This document shows positions 14,894 through 31,629 of a stretch of DNA of 64,000 nt, piece by piece. The first letter of the stretch is position 1. Every line of letters begins with the position of its first letter. The translations under genes and the position numbers were made by a program. Origin of the DNA: Hirsutella rhossiliensis. Taxonomy: Eukaryota; Ascomycota; Sordariomycetes; Hypocreales; Ophiocordycipitaceae. The notes beneath the pieces were generated by a model. The model saw only the letters and a list, made by a program, of their open reading frames with translations, made no database searches and was not told the DNA's origin. The stretch lies in assembly GCF_020360975.1 (NCBI RefSeq), contig NW_025408667.1, positions 1,550,001 through 1,614,000 of the forward strand, given 5' to 3'.

Positions 14894-15433
14894 CGCTCAT
14901 CGGGCTTAGTGGGCAAATTCACCTTACAGTTAGCAAGTATACAAAGTATAGATTGAGGGATCATACGACGAGTCATAATGATGTAAAATTGGAACTTGAT
15001 GTGCGGCGAGTAACTCATATCGAGAAATAATAACATAACCATATACTTCACACTCGGTACTGCTTCATGCTGGACCAAAATTAGAGCATTACCTCACTGC
15101 CTTCATGTCAGACAGTTTGATTGGTGCTTTTAAAAACAGCTAGGCACGGGAAGCCCCAGTCGGTAAGTTAATGCAAGTCCGCAACTAAATCTCCTGATTC
15201 ATGAACAAGCCTCTGGGTAGTCTTATCTTTAGCATTTGCACATATTACTCGGCCAGGCTTCGACAAGGAAGCATCGAACTGACATCTCTATCAAACCAAG
15301 CGCCAGGGAGAGCAATACGACGCGGCCCTGCGAACGGCAGGGCTAGCTTGCCACATGACATTCGGCCCGGTAGAAAAGTCTATGCTAGAGAATACAGGGA
15401 ACTGCGCCGTTCCTGATCAAGTTTCTCTCTGCT
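14894..15433. other. No supported gene
   Basis: Moderately AT-rich at 14900-15060, then normal composition. Short ORFs on both strands have no motif. Confidence 0.4.
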
Positions 15434-16091
15434 GTCATGACTCAGGGCCATGGGTAGGAATTGATACCATCTATTCTCGGCGCTCATAACGTGTCTAAGG
15501 TGCTGTGACCGCCGCTACAGATTAGGGCTCGCGTACCGAGCCGGGCTTGTAGAAGCCTTTATCGCCATTTAGATACCAAAGCCAGATTCCCAAACATATT
15601 TCTTACTAATATTTAAGGCGAATGCGCTTAGAACTGCCGCTAGGGCTCGCTATATCTAGGAAGAGTCCTTAGGGAACGATGGAGGACGCCCCAACTTACT
15701 TCCAGCTATACGTAACTAATAATAGAAATTCGTCCATTGCATCCCGCCATTTCTTCAGGCGTGTCATGACTTAGGGCCATGGGTAGGAATTGATACCATC
15801 TATTCTCGGCGCTCATAACGTGTCCAAGGTGCTGTGACCGCCGCTATAGATTAGGGCTCGCGTACCGAGCCGGGCTTATAGAAGCCTTTATCGCCATTTA
15901 GATACTAAAGCCAGATTCCCAAACATATTTCTTACTAATATTTAAGGCGAATGCGCTTAGAACTGCCGCTAGGGCTCGCTATATCTAGGAAGAGTCCTTG
16001 GGGAACGATGGAGGACGCCCCAACTTACTTCCAGCTATACGTAACTAATAATAGAAATTCGTCCATTGCATCCCGCCATGTCTTCAGGCGT
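15434..16091 (+). repeat. Tandem duplication, two copies of 329 bp, with RIP-type differences
   Basis: Copy 1 is 15434-15762 and copy 2 is 15763-16091, both starting GTCATGACT. I find seven differences by eye. Six are transitions, and all six sit in CpA or TpG context, with the mutated base sometimes in copy 1 and sometimes in copy 2. The seventh is T versus G. No protein frame is evident. Confidence 0.9.
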
Positions 16092-19969: not shown

Positions 19970-22900
19970 ATGGAGACGCCACATTGCTTCGATCTGAAGA
20001 TGATGCCGGGAAGACGCCACAATGATTCTGGATGCCCTGGTCGACGAGTACCTGTTGCCGAGACAGGATCCTCGATCGACGGAAAGCGGAGTCGAGGAGA
20101 TGCTGACCACCAGGGCCCAACGTCGAGTGCCTCGAAGCGACAGAGGCCGCACCGGGCGTTCAACGATAACGAGAGACAAATTCAAGATGGTGTCTCGGGA
20201 ATGTCATCCCACGACTACACTGTCGGTTGGATCTGCGCCCTTCCCATCGAGTTGGCCGCAGCTCGGGCGATGCTGGACGACGTTCACGACGATTTATACA
20301 CGTGCCCCAGCGACAGCAACACGTATACGTTGGGGAATATTGGCTTGCACAACATTGTCCTTGCCTGTCTTCCAGCAAGACAATACGGTACAGTCAACGC
20401 GGCAACGGTGGCGGGCGACATGCGTCGAAGCTTCCCTTGCATCCGCATAGGGTTGATGGTCGGTATTGGCGGCGGAGTCCCTGGCAAGGTCGACATACGA
20501 CTAGGCGATGTAGTCGTCAGTGATGGAGTGAAGCAGCACGATCTCGGAAAGCGTGTCGGGGGCGGCTGTATGCAGTGGACGGGTACGTTGAAGAGACCAC
20601 CGCCGGCCCTCATGACGGCAGTCGCCAAGCTACGGGCGGTCCATGAGTCGAATCCCAGCAAATTACCCTCTATCCTATCTGATATGCTCAGCCGATATCC
20701 AAAAATGACCAGATACAGCCATTGCGGCCCGTCCCAGGATCGCTTGTTCGACGGCACGTACGACCATGTCTCGTCGATGAACAACTGCGATGATTGCGAC
20801 CCACTCAGGTTGGTCAACCGACCTGCTCGAGATAGCACCGATCCCAAGATTCATTACGGAGTCATCGCCTCTGGAAACACTGTCATCAAGGACGGTAGTA
20901 CCAGGGACAAGATGGCGCAAGAGCTCGACGTCCTGTGCTTCGAGATGGAAGCGGCGGGCTTGATGGACAGCTTTCCGTGTCTGGTCATCCGCGGCATCTG
21001 CGACTATAGCGATACTCACAAGAACAAGCAATGGCAAGAGTATGCAGCAGCAACAGCGGCGGCATATGCCATTGAGCTCCTCTCCATCATACCAGCCAAT
21101 GAGGCTCAAGGGATACCAACGATTGCGATTCCTGTAGATGATGCTGGTTGGTACTATCTGGCGCTTGCTTGTTGTAGCTCGCTGAAAACATCATGTAGAA
21201 CGACACAACACCCTCTTGGAGTCTCTCAAGTTTGACCTGATTGATGCCCGCCGCTCAAACATCAAATCGAGCCATTCGACAACCTGCCAGTGGCTGCTGC
21301 AACACCCCGATTATCTAGACTGGCTCGATCCCGAAAAAGCTGTCGACCACAACGGCTTTCTATGGATAAGGGGAAAGCCCGGCACTGGCAAGTCGACCAT
21401 TATGAATTTCGCCTACAAACAGGTGGCCAAGAACAAGGCGAATACCGTCATCTCCTTCTTCTTCAATGCAAGAGGCGATGATTTGGAGCGGTCGACTGCT
21501 GGCATGTATCTCTCTCTCCTGTTCCAGCTCCTGAGTGCCCTGCCGAGGCTTCTCGATGTCTTTGACGGGCCGGAGCACAAGGTTCAGCTCGACGGCTTGC
21601 ACGAGAATATTGTGAGCCAGAGCAGGCAAGCCGAGTGGCCAATGGCACTCCTCCGGGGCTTGCTGCGAAGCGCAATAGCGAGGCTTGGTCTCCAATGCTT
21701 GACGTTCTTTGTCGACGCTCTTGACGAGTGCGACACAGGTCAAGTGGAAGAAATGGTGGAGTATTTTGAGGATCTTGGACAATACGCGGTCTCCAGCGAA
21801 ATTCGGTTTACCGTGTGCTTCTCCAGTCGCCACTATCCACATATTGAAATCGAGCACGGCCGAAAATTGAGCCTGGAGCATCAAGAGGGGCACGAAAAGG
21901 ACATCGCCACGTACATACAAAGCAAGCTCAAGGTCGGGAGGAGCAAGACTGCCGAGGAAATAAAGACCGAGATGCAGGCCAAGGCAGGTGGCATCTTCAT
22001 GTGGGTCGTCCTTGTTGTCGACATTCTCAACGCAGAATACAGGGGCGGGCGGATTTTTCATGTCAGGAAGCGGCTTGACGCGCTGCCGTCCGAGTTGAGC
22101 GACCTCTTCAAGGAAATCCTGGGAAGGGATCAGAGGAACCCGCGAGACCTGCAGCTCTGTGTCCAGTGGATTCTTTTTGCGAAGCGTCCATTGAAGCTGG
22201 AAGAGTACTACTTTGCAGCCGTATCTGGACTAAGTCCTGATGTGTTGCGCGAATGGGACCCTGAAGAAGTCACCAGAGACGACATGAACAGGTTCGTGTT
22301 GAGCTCATCCAAGGGACTTGCAGAGGCAACCAAGTCCAAGAATGCAGCCGTTCAGTTCATACACGAGTCGGTGCGCGAATTCTTCCTCAAAGATGGCCTA
22401 CAGGAGTTGTGGCCCAATCTCACAGCAGCCGAGTTCCCGGGCGTGAGCCATGGCCAGCTACAGCAATGCTGTCTTGCCTACATCAAGCTCGACATCTCGA
22501 ACCATGTGCCCCCTGACAAACCACTTCCAAAGGCATTCTCCGATGCGGCAAAGGAGTTGCGACTAATGGCGTCAGAAAAGTTCCCCTTTCTCGAATATGC
22601 AACGCGCCATATGCTGAACCATGCTGATGCAGCTACCGACTCCCAGGACGCCTTCCTGGAAGAGTTTCCCCTCCAGGCCTGGATCAACTTGGATAACCTG
22701 TTCGAGAAGCACGAAATTCGACGCTACACGCAAAACGCAAGTCTATTGTACATTCTCGCAGAGAACAATTTGACGAGGCTCATGAGGACAACACTTGTCC
22801 ACCATCCGAGAATCAACGTTCGAGGAGAGCGACATCAATACCCTCTCTTCGCCGCCTTGGCTAATAATCATCGAGATGCGGTTAAAACACTCTTGCAACA

Positions 22901-23894
22901 GGAGACAACACTCCCGCAGACGGACGACGTCTCTATGCAACTCGATTATGGGCGGGCTTTCGCGGCTTCCAAGGGCCAGACACCACTGCATTGGGCGTTT
23001 GAGAAGGGGCATGTGGCCCTCGCTCATCTTCTGATTGCGCAAGGGGAGCTCAATCTAGACTCTGGGGGCTGCAAAAAACGGACGCCGCTCTCGTGGGCCG
23101 CCGAGATTGGGCACATAGCTGGTGTGAAGCTGCTGCTCGGCACGGGCCTGGTCAATGTCAACTCGAGGGATAATTCCGGGCGGACGCCGCTCTCATGGGC
23201 CATAGAAAATGGGCACGTGGCTATTGTGAAGCTGCTACTCGACACGGGCCAGGTCGATATCGACTCGAGGGATAATTCCGGGCAGACGCCGCTCTCGGTG
23301 GCCGCCACAAATGGGCATGAGTCTATTATAAGGCTGCTGCTCGGCACGGGCCTAGTTGATGCCGACGTAAGGGATTATTTTGATCAGTCGTCGCTCTCGT
23401 GGGCCGCCGAGAATGGGCATATAGCCGTTGTCAAGCTGCTACTTAATACGGGCCAGGTTGATATCGACTCGAAGGATAATTCCGGCCGGACGCCGCTCTC
23501 GGTGGCCGCCAAAAATGGGCATGAGCCTATTATAAGGCTGCTGCTCGGCACGGGCCTAGTCGATGTCGACGTAAGTGATTGTTTTAACCAGACGCCGCTC
23601 TCATGGGCCGCCGAGAAAGGGCATGTAGCTACTATAAAGCTGCTACTCGATACGGGCCAGGTTGATGTCGACTCGAGGGATAATTCCGGCAGGACGCCGC
23701 TATCGTGGGCCGCCGAGAAAGGGCACGTAGCTGCTGTAAAGCTGCTGCTCGACACGGGCCAGGTTGACGTTCATTCGGGGGATATGACTGGTTTGACGCC
23801 GCTATCGTACGCCGCCAAAAAACAACAACGAGCTGTCGTGGAACTGCTTGTTGCTGGACATGGGCGAATTCCATCTGGAAGTATATATTTGTAG
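19970..23894 (+). CDS. PNP-NACHT-ankyrin STAND receptor (fungal NOD-like receptor), two exons
   Basis: Exon 1 is 19970-21146 and exon 2 is 21199-23894, with a 52-nt intron (GTTGGT...GTAG) joining ...VDDA-E-RHNTLL in frame; 1290 residues. An N-terminal nucleoside-phosphorylase-like domain starts at DYTVGWICALPIELAAARAM (about residue 81), with VGIGGGVP and FEMEAAGLMDSFPCLVIRGI. The NACHT ATPase has Walker A GKPGTGKST (451-459) and Walker B FFVDALDECD (about 562). About nine 34-residue ankyrin repeats run from residue about 984 to the end. Such proteins act in fungal non-self recognition and regulated cell death, by analogy with characterised STAND proteins. ATG 20201 (MSSHDYTVG) is an alternative start that keeps all domains. 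No RIP damage is seen and the gene looks intact. Confidence 0.93.
22970..23851 (+). repeat. Ankyrin-coding tandem repeats, 102-bp unit with 204-bp higher order
   Basis: Units begin G-R/Q-T-P-L-S-W/V-A-A. Two types occur and partly alternate: type B (SWAAE.GH...KLLLDTGQVD) and type A (SVAA.NGHE.IIRLLLGTGLVD). Several units are nearly identical at DNA level, for example 23259-23312 against 23669-23715. Confidence 0.9.
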
Positions 23895-28346: not shown

Positions 28347-29866
28347 AGTCTGGCGTTGACTTGATGCCGTTTTTAAGCGCCTGTCGAGTCATCTGGCGCA
28401 GACGAGGACCCACAACCGCTGTTTACTCTGGGCGGACAGGAGAACTTGGCACCATCTTCGCTCCAAATCCGCGCCCTCTTTGGCCGGTTGCCATGGACCC
28501 TAACGCAAGATGAACTTGACCACAATCTCGGGTCGCCGTCAGCTCATGGACAGTCCGCGGCGCTCCCTCCACCCTGACCTTGCATGTAGCAAAGCGGCTT
28601 TGACATCACCGAAATTCCAATAGTAGAGTCGCTTGCTTCCTGCATCCAACCATTGTCGTCCTCGGCAACAAACGCGGTTGATGTACAGTTACGACTTCAG
28701 CGCCGGCGTCTACGACTTTGGACTCTGCGAGTCTTAGTATGACTCGAGCGGCTTACGTCGCTGTTCCCAGCTCGAGCAGGGCCCCCGGGATCCATCCGGA
28801 ATACATATATATATCCTTGAAAGACTCAGCCTTGCATTATCTGATTGTCTCTCGTCCTGAGCCTGGAACGGAGGCCGCTCAAGACAGCAAGGCTAGTTCG
28901 GTCACCTCGGTCCTACAGGCCAGCCCTTACCAGAGTTTTCAGACCTTGCCACCTTCTTTCTTCGACTCGGAACTCAGCCAAGATCATTGACAGCCAGACG
29001 AGTGTAGCTTTGTTATCCTGACGGTTCGACACCGAGCAAAAGTATAGCAATGGCGGAGGCGAACGAGCCGCCATATAGCGCAAAATAGACGAGTTGATCA
29101 GCCAGAACCGGAAGTTCGCTACAGTCTGCGAGCCTCCGCGGCGAAAGAGAGCCTTCAAGCATGAGCTGGTATCGGGCTTGCAAGACGGGGACCTCGAAAC
29201 CGCGGTAGACACCATGACTCCAGAGCAAGGTTGACGAGTTGACCAGCCAGAATCAGCATGCATAAGAGGGCTGTCGGGTACGTAAGGTCTATATAAAGGT
29301 ATTCAAGGGTAATCCCAGGGATCAACGCGTCAATTCAATGTAGCACGTTCGAGTGCAGACCTGAAGTAGCGCGCCGTCGCTACTTCCACGCCGCAAAATA
29401 GGAGCATTTAACCGCGGTCAGTAAGGTATCGTATAGACAGCAATAGCATACCCGCATATACACACGATCATTTACAGGCGTCCGCAAATGTAACGTAGAT
29501 GTCTATTCTCTAGCCTCTCCACCGAGGAAGCACTGCGCAAATCATGGAGCGCAGCTTTAAGGACGCTGACCTGCCGTCCTACGTCGCGCTAGTGCTTTGT
29601 TACCATAAATTTATTGTCATGACGCAATAGTTGATCCTACCGGTGCAACGAAAAGCCGTCTCCGTCAAGGCTTGGAGGGGACAGCGCTGATATAGTTGTG
29701 ACCTATATTGACCTGGCTAGATATATTTCGAAGACAGGAACCCGCTAACAGTCGGCCGAGCTTAAACTCCAGTGGAGAACTCCATGCAACGACAGAAAGC
29801 TCTCTCCTGGCGGCCGGCCAAGTAATATCACCGTCGGCCGCCGCATCAGGCCCCCCCAAAAAGGGT
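28347..29866. other. Gene-free or relic-bearing spacer
   Basis: 28380-28575 contains a stop-free plus frame with coding-like content (FTLGGQENLAPSSLQIRAL). It could be a lost exon. 28680-28990 has two overlapping open frames with a TAG. A 20-bp near-repeat GACGAGTTGAYCAGCCAGAA occurs at 29089 and 29232. An open minus frame at 29665-29928 overlaps the last exon of the peptide gene, but in another phase. Nothing here is convincing as an intact gene. Confidence 0.4.
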
Positions 29867-30715
29867 CTAGTCCCCATGCTATCGGTTGCGTTAGTTGTGC
29901 TGCCAGCAATTAAAGTCTTCTTCCTCAACTAAGTAAATATACTTACAAGCTATAGTCGCCAGTAGCTTGAGCATGTCGCTAGCAACAATCCTTGTTAAAT
30001 CAGGGAAAGCCACTTACCGTCTATAATCGTTAGCTGTGTTAGCATACCGGTATTCTTGAATAAGGGGAAGCCACTTACAAGCTATAGTTAACAGTCGTAT
30101 CAGCGTTCCGTCAGCAACCACAACCCTCGTTAATTGGAGGAAGCTACTTAAGTTATAGTCTACGGCCGCTATCAGCAATCATAATCCTTATGAACAGGGG
30201 AAGACACTTACCGGCTACAGTTGTCATCAGCAAACACACTCATTGCTAGTTCAAGGAAACCACATACCTTCTATAGTCCACAGTTGTCAGCATGCTGCAC
30301 CAATGACAATCCTAGTCAGTCAGGGGATGTTACTTACCCTCTATAGTTGGTACCGAATTACATTAGTATGCCGCTCGCAATTATAATTCCTGGCTCAGCA
30401 GGGAAAACTACATACAACCTTCGTTTGCCAAATTCATTAGCATGCCGTTAAGAAATACAATCCAGATTTAGGTTAGTCAAGAAAGCCACTTACTATCTGT
30501 TTTCACCAGTCCCATTAACATGCCGCTAAGAATCGCAGTACTCATCAATTGCAGGAAGCTACGTACAACCTTTATTTGCCAGTCGTATCAGCATATCACA
30601 GAGGTTATGATTATTCAACTCTTTGACTTACCACCATTCCAGTTTGTCGAGATTCGAGTGGCGCCGCCAGAACCGCTCCGGCGAGGACCACGATTATTGC
30701 TATTATAGCCTTCAT
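29867..30715 (-). CDS. Secreted small peptide gene with nine 3-nt micro-exons
   Basis: Exon 1 (30715-30632) encodes 28 residues, M-K-A-I-I-A-I-I-V-V-L-A-G-A-V-L-A-A then PLESRQTGMV: a clear signal peptide followed by a Leu-Glu-Ser-Arg-Gln boundary common in fungal secreted peptides. It ends exactly at GTAAGT. Then come nine 3-nt exons: 30567-30569 GTT, 30494-30496 ATA, 30416-30418 GTT, 30338-30340 AGG, 30268-30270 AAG, 30212-30214 CCG, 30079-30081 CTT, 30018-30020 ACG, 29947-29949 CTT. The last exon (29878-29867) gives H-G-D-stop. All junctions are phase 0. Introns are 62, 70, 75, 75, 67, 53, 130, 58, 68 and 68 nt. They have GTAAGT, GTATGT or GTACGT donors, a branch-like CTRAY (or TTAAT, CTCAA) and an AG end. 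Total 40 residues. The function is unknown. The alternative is one long intron with all codons skipped (31 residues). Confidence 0.72.
29879..30631 (-). repeat. Tandem array of intron-plus-codon units
   Basis: Eleven homologous units, about 53-75 bp each, lie head to tail. On the plus strand they appear as ACTTAC (or ACATAC, ACGTAC), three bases, then CTATAG-like. Unit interiors share motifs such as GTGGCTT.CC near the donor and GCATGCTAATG or GCTGATACGACTG near the branch site. Eleven, not ten, because the unit at about 30144-30158 has lost its splice sites. The units are too diverged and too short to attract RIP. Confidence 0.85.
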
Positions 30716-31629
30716 GTTGATGATAAAGGTAATTTGAAAGATAAAAAGCACTTAGGGGTAGTGAGCAAGAACAAAAGGCTACCTTGACCTAATATAGAGA
30801 TGATATTAGACAAAGTTAGGTCGTGCACAAAGAGAGTAACCTATAAATAATCTTAAAGAAAATATTGACGTGATAACTTAGCAGGGAGGAAGTAAAGCTA
30901 TATATATTCGGAGGAGCTTTTATAGGCTGCCTGTTACTTATACACGATATATAAATGTAGTCGGAAACCGGAGAGGTCACCGGGTAATTAACGGCAGTAG
31001 CGTTATATAAATAGAATATTATATCTCTTAGAATATATAACAATTATACTAAGGGTATTTAAATAAGAAACCTTAATATTCGAGCTTATATTACCTCTAC
31101 GTATCCACTGAATTTCGTTTATATTAGAAACCTCTATGCCTACGTGACTCGTTCTAGAGCGGAATATTTTAGTCCTTCGGAATCCCTGGCTAAAGCCCGA
31201 GTGTCCATTCGTACAGGGGGATTATAATGTTACTACTACGCTTATCGAGATATACGTTCAGTGTAAAGGATTATTCGCTGTATCCGCGGTATTAACCTCG
31301 CTAACTTATAAGCTAGTCTAATTAGCGGAGAGGGAGCTAAGTAGTTAGACATTTTATATAAAAATTACTAGGGCAGGATACTTATTATAAGTGCAAAAAG
31401 TTTTATTATATAAAGGCCCTAACTAGAGAGTATATATATATAAATAGGGAGTATATAAAATAAGTAGGGTAGTATAGCTTATTAAGGCGCAGCGCTATAT
31501 AAGAGCGCTACTAGGAGGTACGGGCTAATAAAGCACTTAGGTACGTATTACTAATATATCGGTAGGGTATTAGTAGGGAATCGTATATACTCCGCTCGCG
31601 AGTTATAAATAACTTACTACTTTAACTAA
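30716..31629. other. Promoter side of the peptide gene, grading into RIP-mutated DNA
   Basis: Directly upstream of the peptide ATG the minus strand reads TTTATCATCAAC, a plausible leader. From about 30790 CA and TG vanish and TA runs dominate. No gene seen. Confidence 0.5.

What the first reader, a model, noticed from the sequence alone, without database searches (positions are those of the whole stretch)
29867..30715. A secreted-peptide gene built from nine single-codon (3-nt) micro-exons
Seen: on the minus strand, a signal-peptide exon ending at GTAAGT is followed by a regular series AG-NNN-GT(A/G/T)NGT. Exactly three bases lie between each acceptor and the next donor, nine times over about 690 bp, with a branch-like site before almost every acceptor. 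All junctions are phase 0, so each exon adds one residue (V, I, V, R, K, P, L, T, L) between a constant N-terminus and H-G-D-stop. Known: 3-nt micro-exons exist singly in animals and plants, and schistosome micro-exon genes use short in-frame exons to vary secreted proteins. I know of no fungal gene with a tandem array of single-codon exons. Inference: any exon can be skipped without loss of frame, so one locus could yield up to 2^9 peptides. It may alternatively be spliced recursively as a ratchet.
Basis: partly seen in the sequence, partly recalled or inferred. Interest (0 to 1): 0.96.

Follow-up and report, generated by a model that had tools for sequence, protein, structure and literature searches.

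The report
Peptide genes with one-codon exons
A fungal genome holds a family of genes, most with a signal-peptide exon, in which the rest of a small peptide is written as up to 74 three-base blocks between related introns, one amino acid per block; the blocks are likely joined by dozens of successive splicing steps, and an uninterrupted sister of one of these genes in the same genome spells a related protein.

Summary
In detail: nine AG-NNN-GTANGT units at 29947-30571 (-), where shuffles give at most 2. It is not unique: I read runs of three or more such units at eleven other loci of the genome, one with 74 single-codon exons, then an acceptor and a stop codon. A profile trained on introns of other loci finds the window's introns and nothing else in the window. 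Decisive for the family: L051, an uninterrupted paralogue of the 74-codon gene; its mature part aligns to the array at score 215 (best of 5000 shuffles 83). Over 310 triplets there are no stops (6.8 expected, P 0.0007) and Cys is twofold enriched. In the younger arrays codon positions 1 and 2 are hypervariable inside nearly invariant repeats. Best reading: the mature peptide is written one codon per exon, likely spliced codon by codon, and edited by duplicating and exchanging codon-plus-intron units; uninterrupted copies were probably cast from spliced RNA. No RNA data were available; the window gene itself has no uninterrupted paralogue; combinatorial skipping is untested.

The parts
30632..30715 (-). 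exon 1, 84 nt, signal peptide and short pro-part MKAIIAIIVVLAGAVLAAPLESRQTGMV, donor GTAAGT
   Evidence: the only match of this exon in the genome at E <= 1; signal peptide read by eye
30567..30569 (-). single-codon exon 1, GTT (V)
30494..30496 (-). single-codon exon 2, ATA (I)
30416..30418 (-). single-codon exon 3, GTT (V)
30338..30340 (-). single-codon exon 4, AGG (R)
30268..30270 (-). single-codon exon 5, AAG (K)
30212..30214 (-). single-codon exon 6, CCG (P)
30079..30081 (-). single-codon exon 7, CTT (L)
30018..30020 (-). single-codon exon 8, ACG (T)
29947..29949 (-). single-codon exon 9, CTT (L)
30082..30211 (-). double-length intron 7 holding a tenth, decayed unit (near 30150)
   Evidence: intron part 30082-30150 matches the family profile at E 2e-8
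29879..30631 (-). the ten introns of the array (30570-30631, 30497-30566, 30419-30493, 30341-30415, 30271-30337, 30215-30267, 30082-30211, 30021-30078, 29950-30017, 29879-29946), homologous to those of other arrays
   Evidence: 10 profile hits, 6 with E < 0.05, 4 with E 0.13-0.92, none elsewhere in the window
29867..29878 (-). last exon CAT GGG GAC TAG (H-G-D-stop)
29733..29801 (-). 3' flank element found at 27 places of the genome, 91% identical to the C5 copy over 69 nt
   Evidence: C1:1579733-1579801, E 1.9e-20
30917..30924 (-). TATA-like box TATAAAAG about 200 nt before the start codon
   Evidence: read by eye; not tested

Best explanation
The window locus belongs to a gene family in which a signal-peptide exon is followed by a run of three-base exons, one codon each, between homologous introns, and the codons are predicted to be joined by successive splicing into the mature secreted peptide. 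Shown from sequence: runs of single-codon units at twelve loci (window included), a signal-type exon read at seven of them (window, C6, C5, C3/L034, C10, C13, C8), homologous introns at ten of the twelve, a stop codon directly after the last acceptor at seven places (C6, C5, C10, C8, L044, L045, L048), and an uninterrupted paralogue of C6 that spells a related protein contiguously. Inferred: splicing runs 5' to 3' as a ratchet, each step adding one codon to a growing first exon. Inferred: arrays grow and change by duplication and unequal recombination inside introns, so each event adds, removes or swaps whole amino acids in frame, while selection keeps or diversifies the codons. Inferred: the uninterrupted members were probably made when a spliced RNA copy replaced an array. 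The window member is an old, small, partly decayed array.
For: Genome-wide, the two-intron 3-nt pattern has 178 hits against 1 for the reversed pattern; a donor-branch-acceptor-NNN-donor pattern has 114 against 0; the one-intron form has 267 against 13 for 3 nt and 40 against 10 for 6 nt; include hits in AT-rich repeats. In the fetched stretches the 3-nt counts are 72 (L032), 27 (L033), 16 (L034), 24 and 42 (L039, L040, which overlap by 3 kb), 41 (L041), 43 (L042) and 27 (L044); each length from 4 to 12 gives 0-3. C6: exon 1 ends in KR-A, then 74 single-codon exons, then TAG|TAA. L051 in the same genome is an uninterrupted ORF: C6 array peptide against its mature part scores 215, shuffles mean 42, sd 8, maximum 83 of 5000; 46 of 67 aligned array residues identical; upstream 120 nt 90% and 130 nt after the stop 97% identical. 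Against the tail of P0001 the array in frame scores 148 (shuffles at most 77), triplets shifted by 1-2 bases 13-35, reversed order 50. 310 triplets inside 11 array sets: 0 stops (6.8 expected, P 0.0007), 52 Cys (26.9 expected, maximum 41 of 10000 shuffles). Diversity at codon positions 1+2 against the nearest 28 flanking sites: 0.65 v 0.04 (C10), 0.74 v 0.08 (L044), 0.74 v 0.12 (C6). Units with identical downstream introns share the codon in 10 of 15 pairs (C10) and 6 of 11 (C13), against 0.14 and 0.09 expected; pairs identical on both sides in 3 of 3 and 1 of 1; C10 (41 codons) and C13 (43) differ by a middle block exchanged in whole units. Relic bias: the mature parts of uninterrupted L051, L052 and L060 show one preferred third base, as arrays do; their signal parts do not (p 3.7e-4, 6.6e-5, 4.8e-6).
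Against: No RNA or peptide data could be reached, so splicing itself is inferred. The window gene has no uninterrupted paralogue, no Cys, one dead unit, and three codons instead of none between its last acceptor and the stop. 4 of its 10 profile hits are weak (E 0.13-0.92). Over all unit pairs codon identity is not significantly tied to intron similarity (six tests, P 0.09-0.48), and codons differ in 65-88% of the pairs (4, 17 and 8 pairs) whose two introns are at least 95% identical. C6 and C10 introns are closer (0.109) than their exon 1 (0.208), which fits introns moving between loci. The contrast is partly built in, since the pattern fixes AG and GT, and it is weaker in older arrays (flanks 0.37 in C5, 0.35 in the window). 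On an earlier set of 147 triplets the stop test gave P 0.068; isolated hits outside arrays were dropped before counting, among them a TGA in L039 and a TAA in L055. C10 and C13 are near-duplicates. 3 of 9 uninterrupted members tested (L054, L055, L059) lack the third-base shift. Arrays L035 and L038 have no family introns.
Confidence: 0.8

Rival explanations
1. Intron invasion: the family began uninterrupted, and a mobile, introner-like intron inserted between every pair of codons of some members.
For: Codons are largely decoupled from intron similarity. Introns of C6 and C10 are closer than their exon 1. A single family intron sits at phase 0 inside an otherwise uninterrupted gene (L060). C6 groups with uninterrupted L051 and L052 on upstream, exon 1 and 3' flank (unrooted tree).
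Against: It must hit every codon boundary, only at phase 0, with no gaps: no run of 6- or 9-nt exons appears in the long arrays. Identical downstream introns share codons far above chance. The third-base relic in 6 of 9 uninterrupted genes.
Confidence: 0.3
2. Combinatorial secreted peptides: exons are skipped freely, so one locus makes many peptides.
For: All nine inner exons are 3 nt and phase 0, so any skip keeps the frame.
Against: L051 matches the all-included product of C6. Cys enrichment and alignable Cys order suggest one folded product. No isoform data.
Confidence: 0.12
3. A non-coding minisatellite inside one long intron or an untranscribed stretch; the triplets mean nothing.
For: The units are tandem repeats, and no transcript was seen.
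Against: No stops in 310 triplets, Cys excess, in-frame match to L051 and P0001 that vanishes on shifting, and stop codons directly after the last acceptor.
Confidence: 0.05
4. Assembly artefact of a repeat.
For: Arrays are repetitive.
Against: They lie in large contigs at many loci, with diverged introns (0.30 substitutions per site in C5) and shared flanks. Raw reads were not seen.
Confidence: 0.02

Closest known systems
Micro-exon genes (MEGs) of schistosomes
   Same: Secreted products; short symmetric exons after a signal-peptide exon (recalled; PMC4350168 seen as search listing with start of abstract).
   Different: There exons are several codons long (recalled); here the mature-part exons are one codon each, dozens in a row, between homologous introns.
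bicycle genes of aphids (putative gall effectors with many micro-exons)
   Same: Fast-evolving effector candidates (PMC9168663, search listing with start of abstract).
   Different: Exons are longer and not single codons (recalled).
Introner-like elements of fungi
   Same: Families of similar introns in several genes (PMC4457414 and PMC9860276, search listings).
   Different: Introners land singly in ordinary exons (recalled); here introns saturate a coding region at 3-nt spacing and appear to duplicate with their codon.
Stwintrons (spliceosomal twin introns)
   Same: Short fungal introns removed in successive steps (PMC8469720 and PMC9024468, search listings).
   Different: No nested donor or acceptor here; each intron has its own and the triplet between is predicted to be coding.
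Xlr2 microexon of Trichoderma virens
   [quoted passage not shown] pombe).
   Different: A single regulated microexon in a transcription factor.
Conotoxin-type gene families
   Same: Conserved signal and 3' region with hypervariable Cys-rich mature part (recalled).
   Different: Similarity to toxin models is weak and was seen at one locus only (C5), among the four products scanned plus C13; no single-codon exons are known to me there.

Membership tests
this single-codon-exon family (window locus as member) | introns homologous to those of the other arrays | tested here: met
   profile from six other arrays gives 10 hits in the window, all in the array on -, 6 of them with E < 0.05; 0 elsewhere, 0 in the reversed window
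this single-codon-exon family (window locus as member) | shared 3' flank element | tested here: met
   91% over 69 nt, E 1.9e-20
this single-codon-exon family (window locus as member) | stop codon directly after the last acceptor | tested here: not met
   CAT GGG GAC then TAG; seven other places have it, read by eye
schistosome micro-exon genes | protein homology to MEG products | not tested
   one search found no homologue of the 40-aa product at all
schistosome micro-exon genes | signal-peptide exon followed by short symmetric exons | tested here: met
   works like one, membership not claimed
introner-like elements | similar introns in several genes, also singly in an ordinary gene | tested here: met
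   (L060)
introner-like elements | signs of insertion (target-site duplication or terminal repeats) | not tested
   no empty-site comparison was made
stwintrons | one intron interrupts the donor, branch or acceptor of another | tested here: not met
   each of the ten introns has its own donor and acceptor
knottin / ion-channel toxin-like peptides (locus C5 only) | Pfam Toxin_12 above its cut-off | tested here: not met
   18.9 bits against 21; PDB best E 0.022

The most novel reading that the evidence does not exclude
A codon-cassette coding system: every amino acid of a secreted peptide is a separate intron-plus-codon cassette that can be duplicated, deleted or swapped without breaking the frame. 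It is read by up to 75 sequential splicing steps, and from time to time a spliced copy is printed back into the genome as an uninterrupted gene, so the array acts as a generator of new secreted peptides.
Probability: 0.5. Interest if true: 0.98.

Novelty: categorically new. Interest (0 to 1): 0.95.

Why it matters
If transcripts confirm it, exons can shrink to one codon and tile a whole peptide, with 75 introns for 107 codons at C6. That would test the lower limit of exon size and the order of splicing, and give a natural case of exon shuffling at the scale of single amino acids. It would also mean that standard gene finders and aligners are likely to miss such peptides. Interrupted and uninterrupted paralogues in one genome make intron gain or loss directly testable.

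Tried and rejected
Taken back: P0001 (HRG_012392, Hirsutella rhossiliensis) was first read as an independent species. L052 in the same genome is identical to it over 90 residues, so it is probably the same or a very near species and counts only as a record of an uninterrupted member. Led nowhere: the 40-aa window product and the C13 product had no homologue; Rfam gave nothing at E <= 1 for L044, L045 and L046, which hold the 3' element; three copies of the element are not strongly structured (z -1.1, -0.3, -1.4); plasmids gave no match. Considered and dropped: minisatellite, one long intron, assembly artefact (see rivals). False positives in pattern searches: AT-rich repeats beginning GTAGGTCTCCC, GTAAGTATAGCTTAAGG and others, GTAAGTAGTAAG. 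Four near-identical loci have family-like introns round a 6-nt exon (one of the four read, L064). Hit lists were cut by the tool, so later contigs are under-listed; the counts are whole. Not done: the genome-wide 4-nt control (searches did not complete).

Full report
Observation. On the minus strand at 30715-29867 an 84-nt exon that reads as a signal peptide is followed by nine triplets, each between AG and GTANGT, and a short last exon. Length 3 is the only exon length in excess, and 5000 dinucleotide shuffles give at most 2 units. A tenth unit is dead. The window's exon 1 has no other match in the genome at E <= 1.

It is a family. The window lies in an 81.8-Mb genome of 40 contigs, which could be searched. 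The two-intron pattern has 178 hits against 1 reversed, some of them in an AT-rich repeat; a stricter pattern with a branch site has 114 against 0. I read runs of three or more units at eleven other loci: C6 (L032), C5 (L033), C3 (L034, L036, L037), C1 (L035), C6 (L038), C8 (L039 with L040), C10 (L041), C13 (L042) and C8 (L044 with L063). In the larger ones the 3-nt class dominates and each length from 4 to 12 gives 0-3; length 0 gives 7 and 5 in L039 and L040. A profile built from up to 12 introns of each of six arrays (C6, C10, C8, L044, C5, C3) recognises introns in the window (10 hits, 6 with E < 0.05) and, among loci not used to train it, in L036, L037, L042, L043, L045, L048, L049 and L060; it finds none in L035 and L038, whose introns are unrelated.

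Architecture. C6: exon 1 is MKVTIVLLTTLAGWGLASPVLDAESGAKLEKRA, then 74 single-codon exons, then TAG|TAA. A stop codon also stands directly behind the last acceptor at C5, C10, C8, L044, L045 and L048 (read by eye). Exon 1 ends at or next to KR, as expected for Kex2-type cleavage, in C6, C10 and C8. At L044 the array instead extends a longer upstream reading frame. The C8 array is interrupted by two insertions inside introns (by eye).

The triplets are codons. L051 is an uninterrupted ORF of 117 codons whose promoter side (90% over 120 nt) and 3' side (97% over 130 nt) match C6. The C6 array peptide aligns with its mature part at score 215 against at most 83 in 5000 shuffles, with 46 of 67 aligned array residues identical. 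L052 carries two more uninterrupted copies. P0001, a hypothetical protein of Hirsutella rhossiliensis, equals one of them over 90 residues, so the genome is probably that species or a near relative. Against the P0001 tail the array scores 148 in frame and 13 to 35 when each triplet is shifted by one or two bases. Over 310 triplets of 11 sets (ten loci; L037, L038 and shorter runs left out, isolated hits outside arrays dropped, among them a TGA in L039 and a TAA in L055) there are no stops where 6.8 are expected (P 0.0007), and 52 Cys codons where 26.9 are expected. On an earlier set of 147 the stop test gave P 0.068. C10 and C13 are near-duplicates, so the counts are not fully independent.

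How arrays change. In the younger arrays the repeats round the codon are almost invariant, yet codon positions 1 and 2 are near saturation: 0.65 v 0.04 in C10, 0.74 v 0.08 in L044, 0.74 v 0.12 in C6; in the older C5 and window arrays the flanks reach 0.37 and 0.35. The search pattern itself fixes AG and GT, which lowers the flank values somewhat. Over all pairs codon identity is not tied to intron similarity. But units with an identical downstream intron share the codon in 10 of 15 (C10) and 6 of 11 (C13) pairs, with identical upstream intron in 5 of 15 and 2 of 11, and all four pairs identical on both sides share it; C6 and L044 have only one or two such pairs. C10 and C13 agree in the first 24 and last 12 codons and differ in a middle block of 5 and 7 whole units. 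I read this as duplication and exchange of codon-plus-intron units by recombination within introns, with selection on codons (inference).

Uninterrupted members. A 3' flank element has 27 hits in the genome. All 27 places were read: 9 are arrays of three or more units, 3 are short or decayed arrays (L045, L048, L049), 11 carry an uninterrupted or ordinary gene (L046, L047, L050, L051, L052 twice, L054, L055, L056, L059, L060), and 4 are unclear (L053, L057, L058, L061). By eye most of the 11 look like small secreted proteins with unlike mature parts. In 6 of 9 tested, the two near-identical L052 copies counted apart, the mature part prefers one third base more than the signal part (p < 0.01), as in arrays; in L054, L055 and L059 it does not (the cut was set by a simple rule, in L050 and L059 arbitrarily at residue 28). 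This favours array first, with uninterrupted copies cast from spliced RNA. Beyond the element the 3' side of C6 matches array C10, not L051, which fits too. The rival, intron invasion, is favoured by introns that are closer (0.109) than exon 1 (0.208) between C6 and C10, by the grouping of C6 with L051 and L052, and by a lone family intron in L060. On origin I hold about 0.6 to 0.3 for array first.

Splicing mechanism. Inferred only: with 3-nt exons U1 and the upstream 3' splice factors cannot sit together, so 5'-to-3' stepwise removal, each step adding one codon to exon 1, is the simplest route.

Known work. Searches of the open-access library listed no paper whose title or shown abstract reports a tandem array of single-codon exons; the library lacks most subscription papers and preprints. 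Closest are schistosome micro-exon genes, aphid bicycle genes, introner-like elements, stwintrons and the Xlr2 microexon. Only the last was read beyond the listing (abstract and passages).

The window member. It has the signal exon, family introns and 3' element, but its array is old (diverged introns), has one dead unit, no Cys and no uninterrupted paralogue. It may still make a short peptide (VIVRKPLTLHGD by conceptual splicing) or be decaying.

Noticed in passing
L033 (C5:2398501-2407500): The product implied by this array has a six-cysteine knottin-like spacing and a sub-threshold Pfam Toxin_12 match.
   Followed up: partly
window 29733-29801 and 26 other places of the genome: A conserved 60-70-nt element roughly 50-150 nt after the stop codon of array genes and of other small genes; no Rfam match in three loci scanned, function unknown.
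   Followed up: partly
L035 (C1:10734001-10742000) and L038 (C6:1210501-1218500): Runs of 3-nt units whose introns are not recognised by the main family's profile, perhaps a separate origin.
   Followed up: no
L064 (C2:6218401-6220900) and C7:3594962, C8:396375, C11:281583: Four near-identical loci with family-like introns round a 6-nt, two-codon exon (one of four read).
   Followed up: partly
L039/L040 (C8): A long array of 57 counted units interrupted inside introns by two insertions.
   Followed up: partly
window 21216-23894: An 892-aa ORF with 102-nt repeats that look like ankyrin repeats behind a NACHT-like start (domain names by eye, not searched).
   Followed up: no
window 15433-16091: A two-copy tandem repeat of 329 bp, 97% matches.
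   Followed up: no
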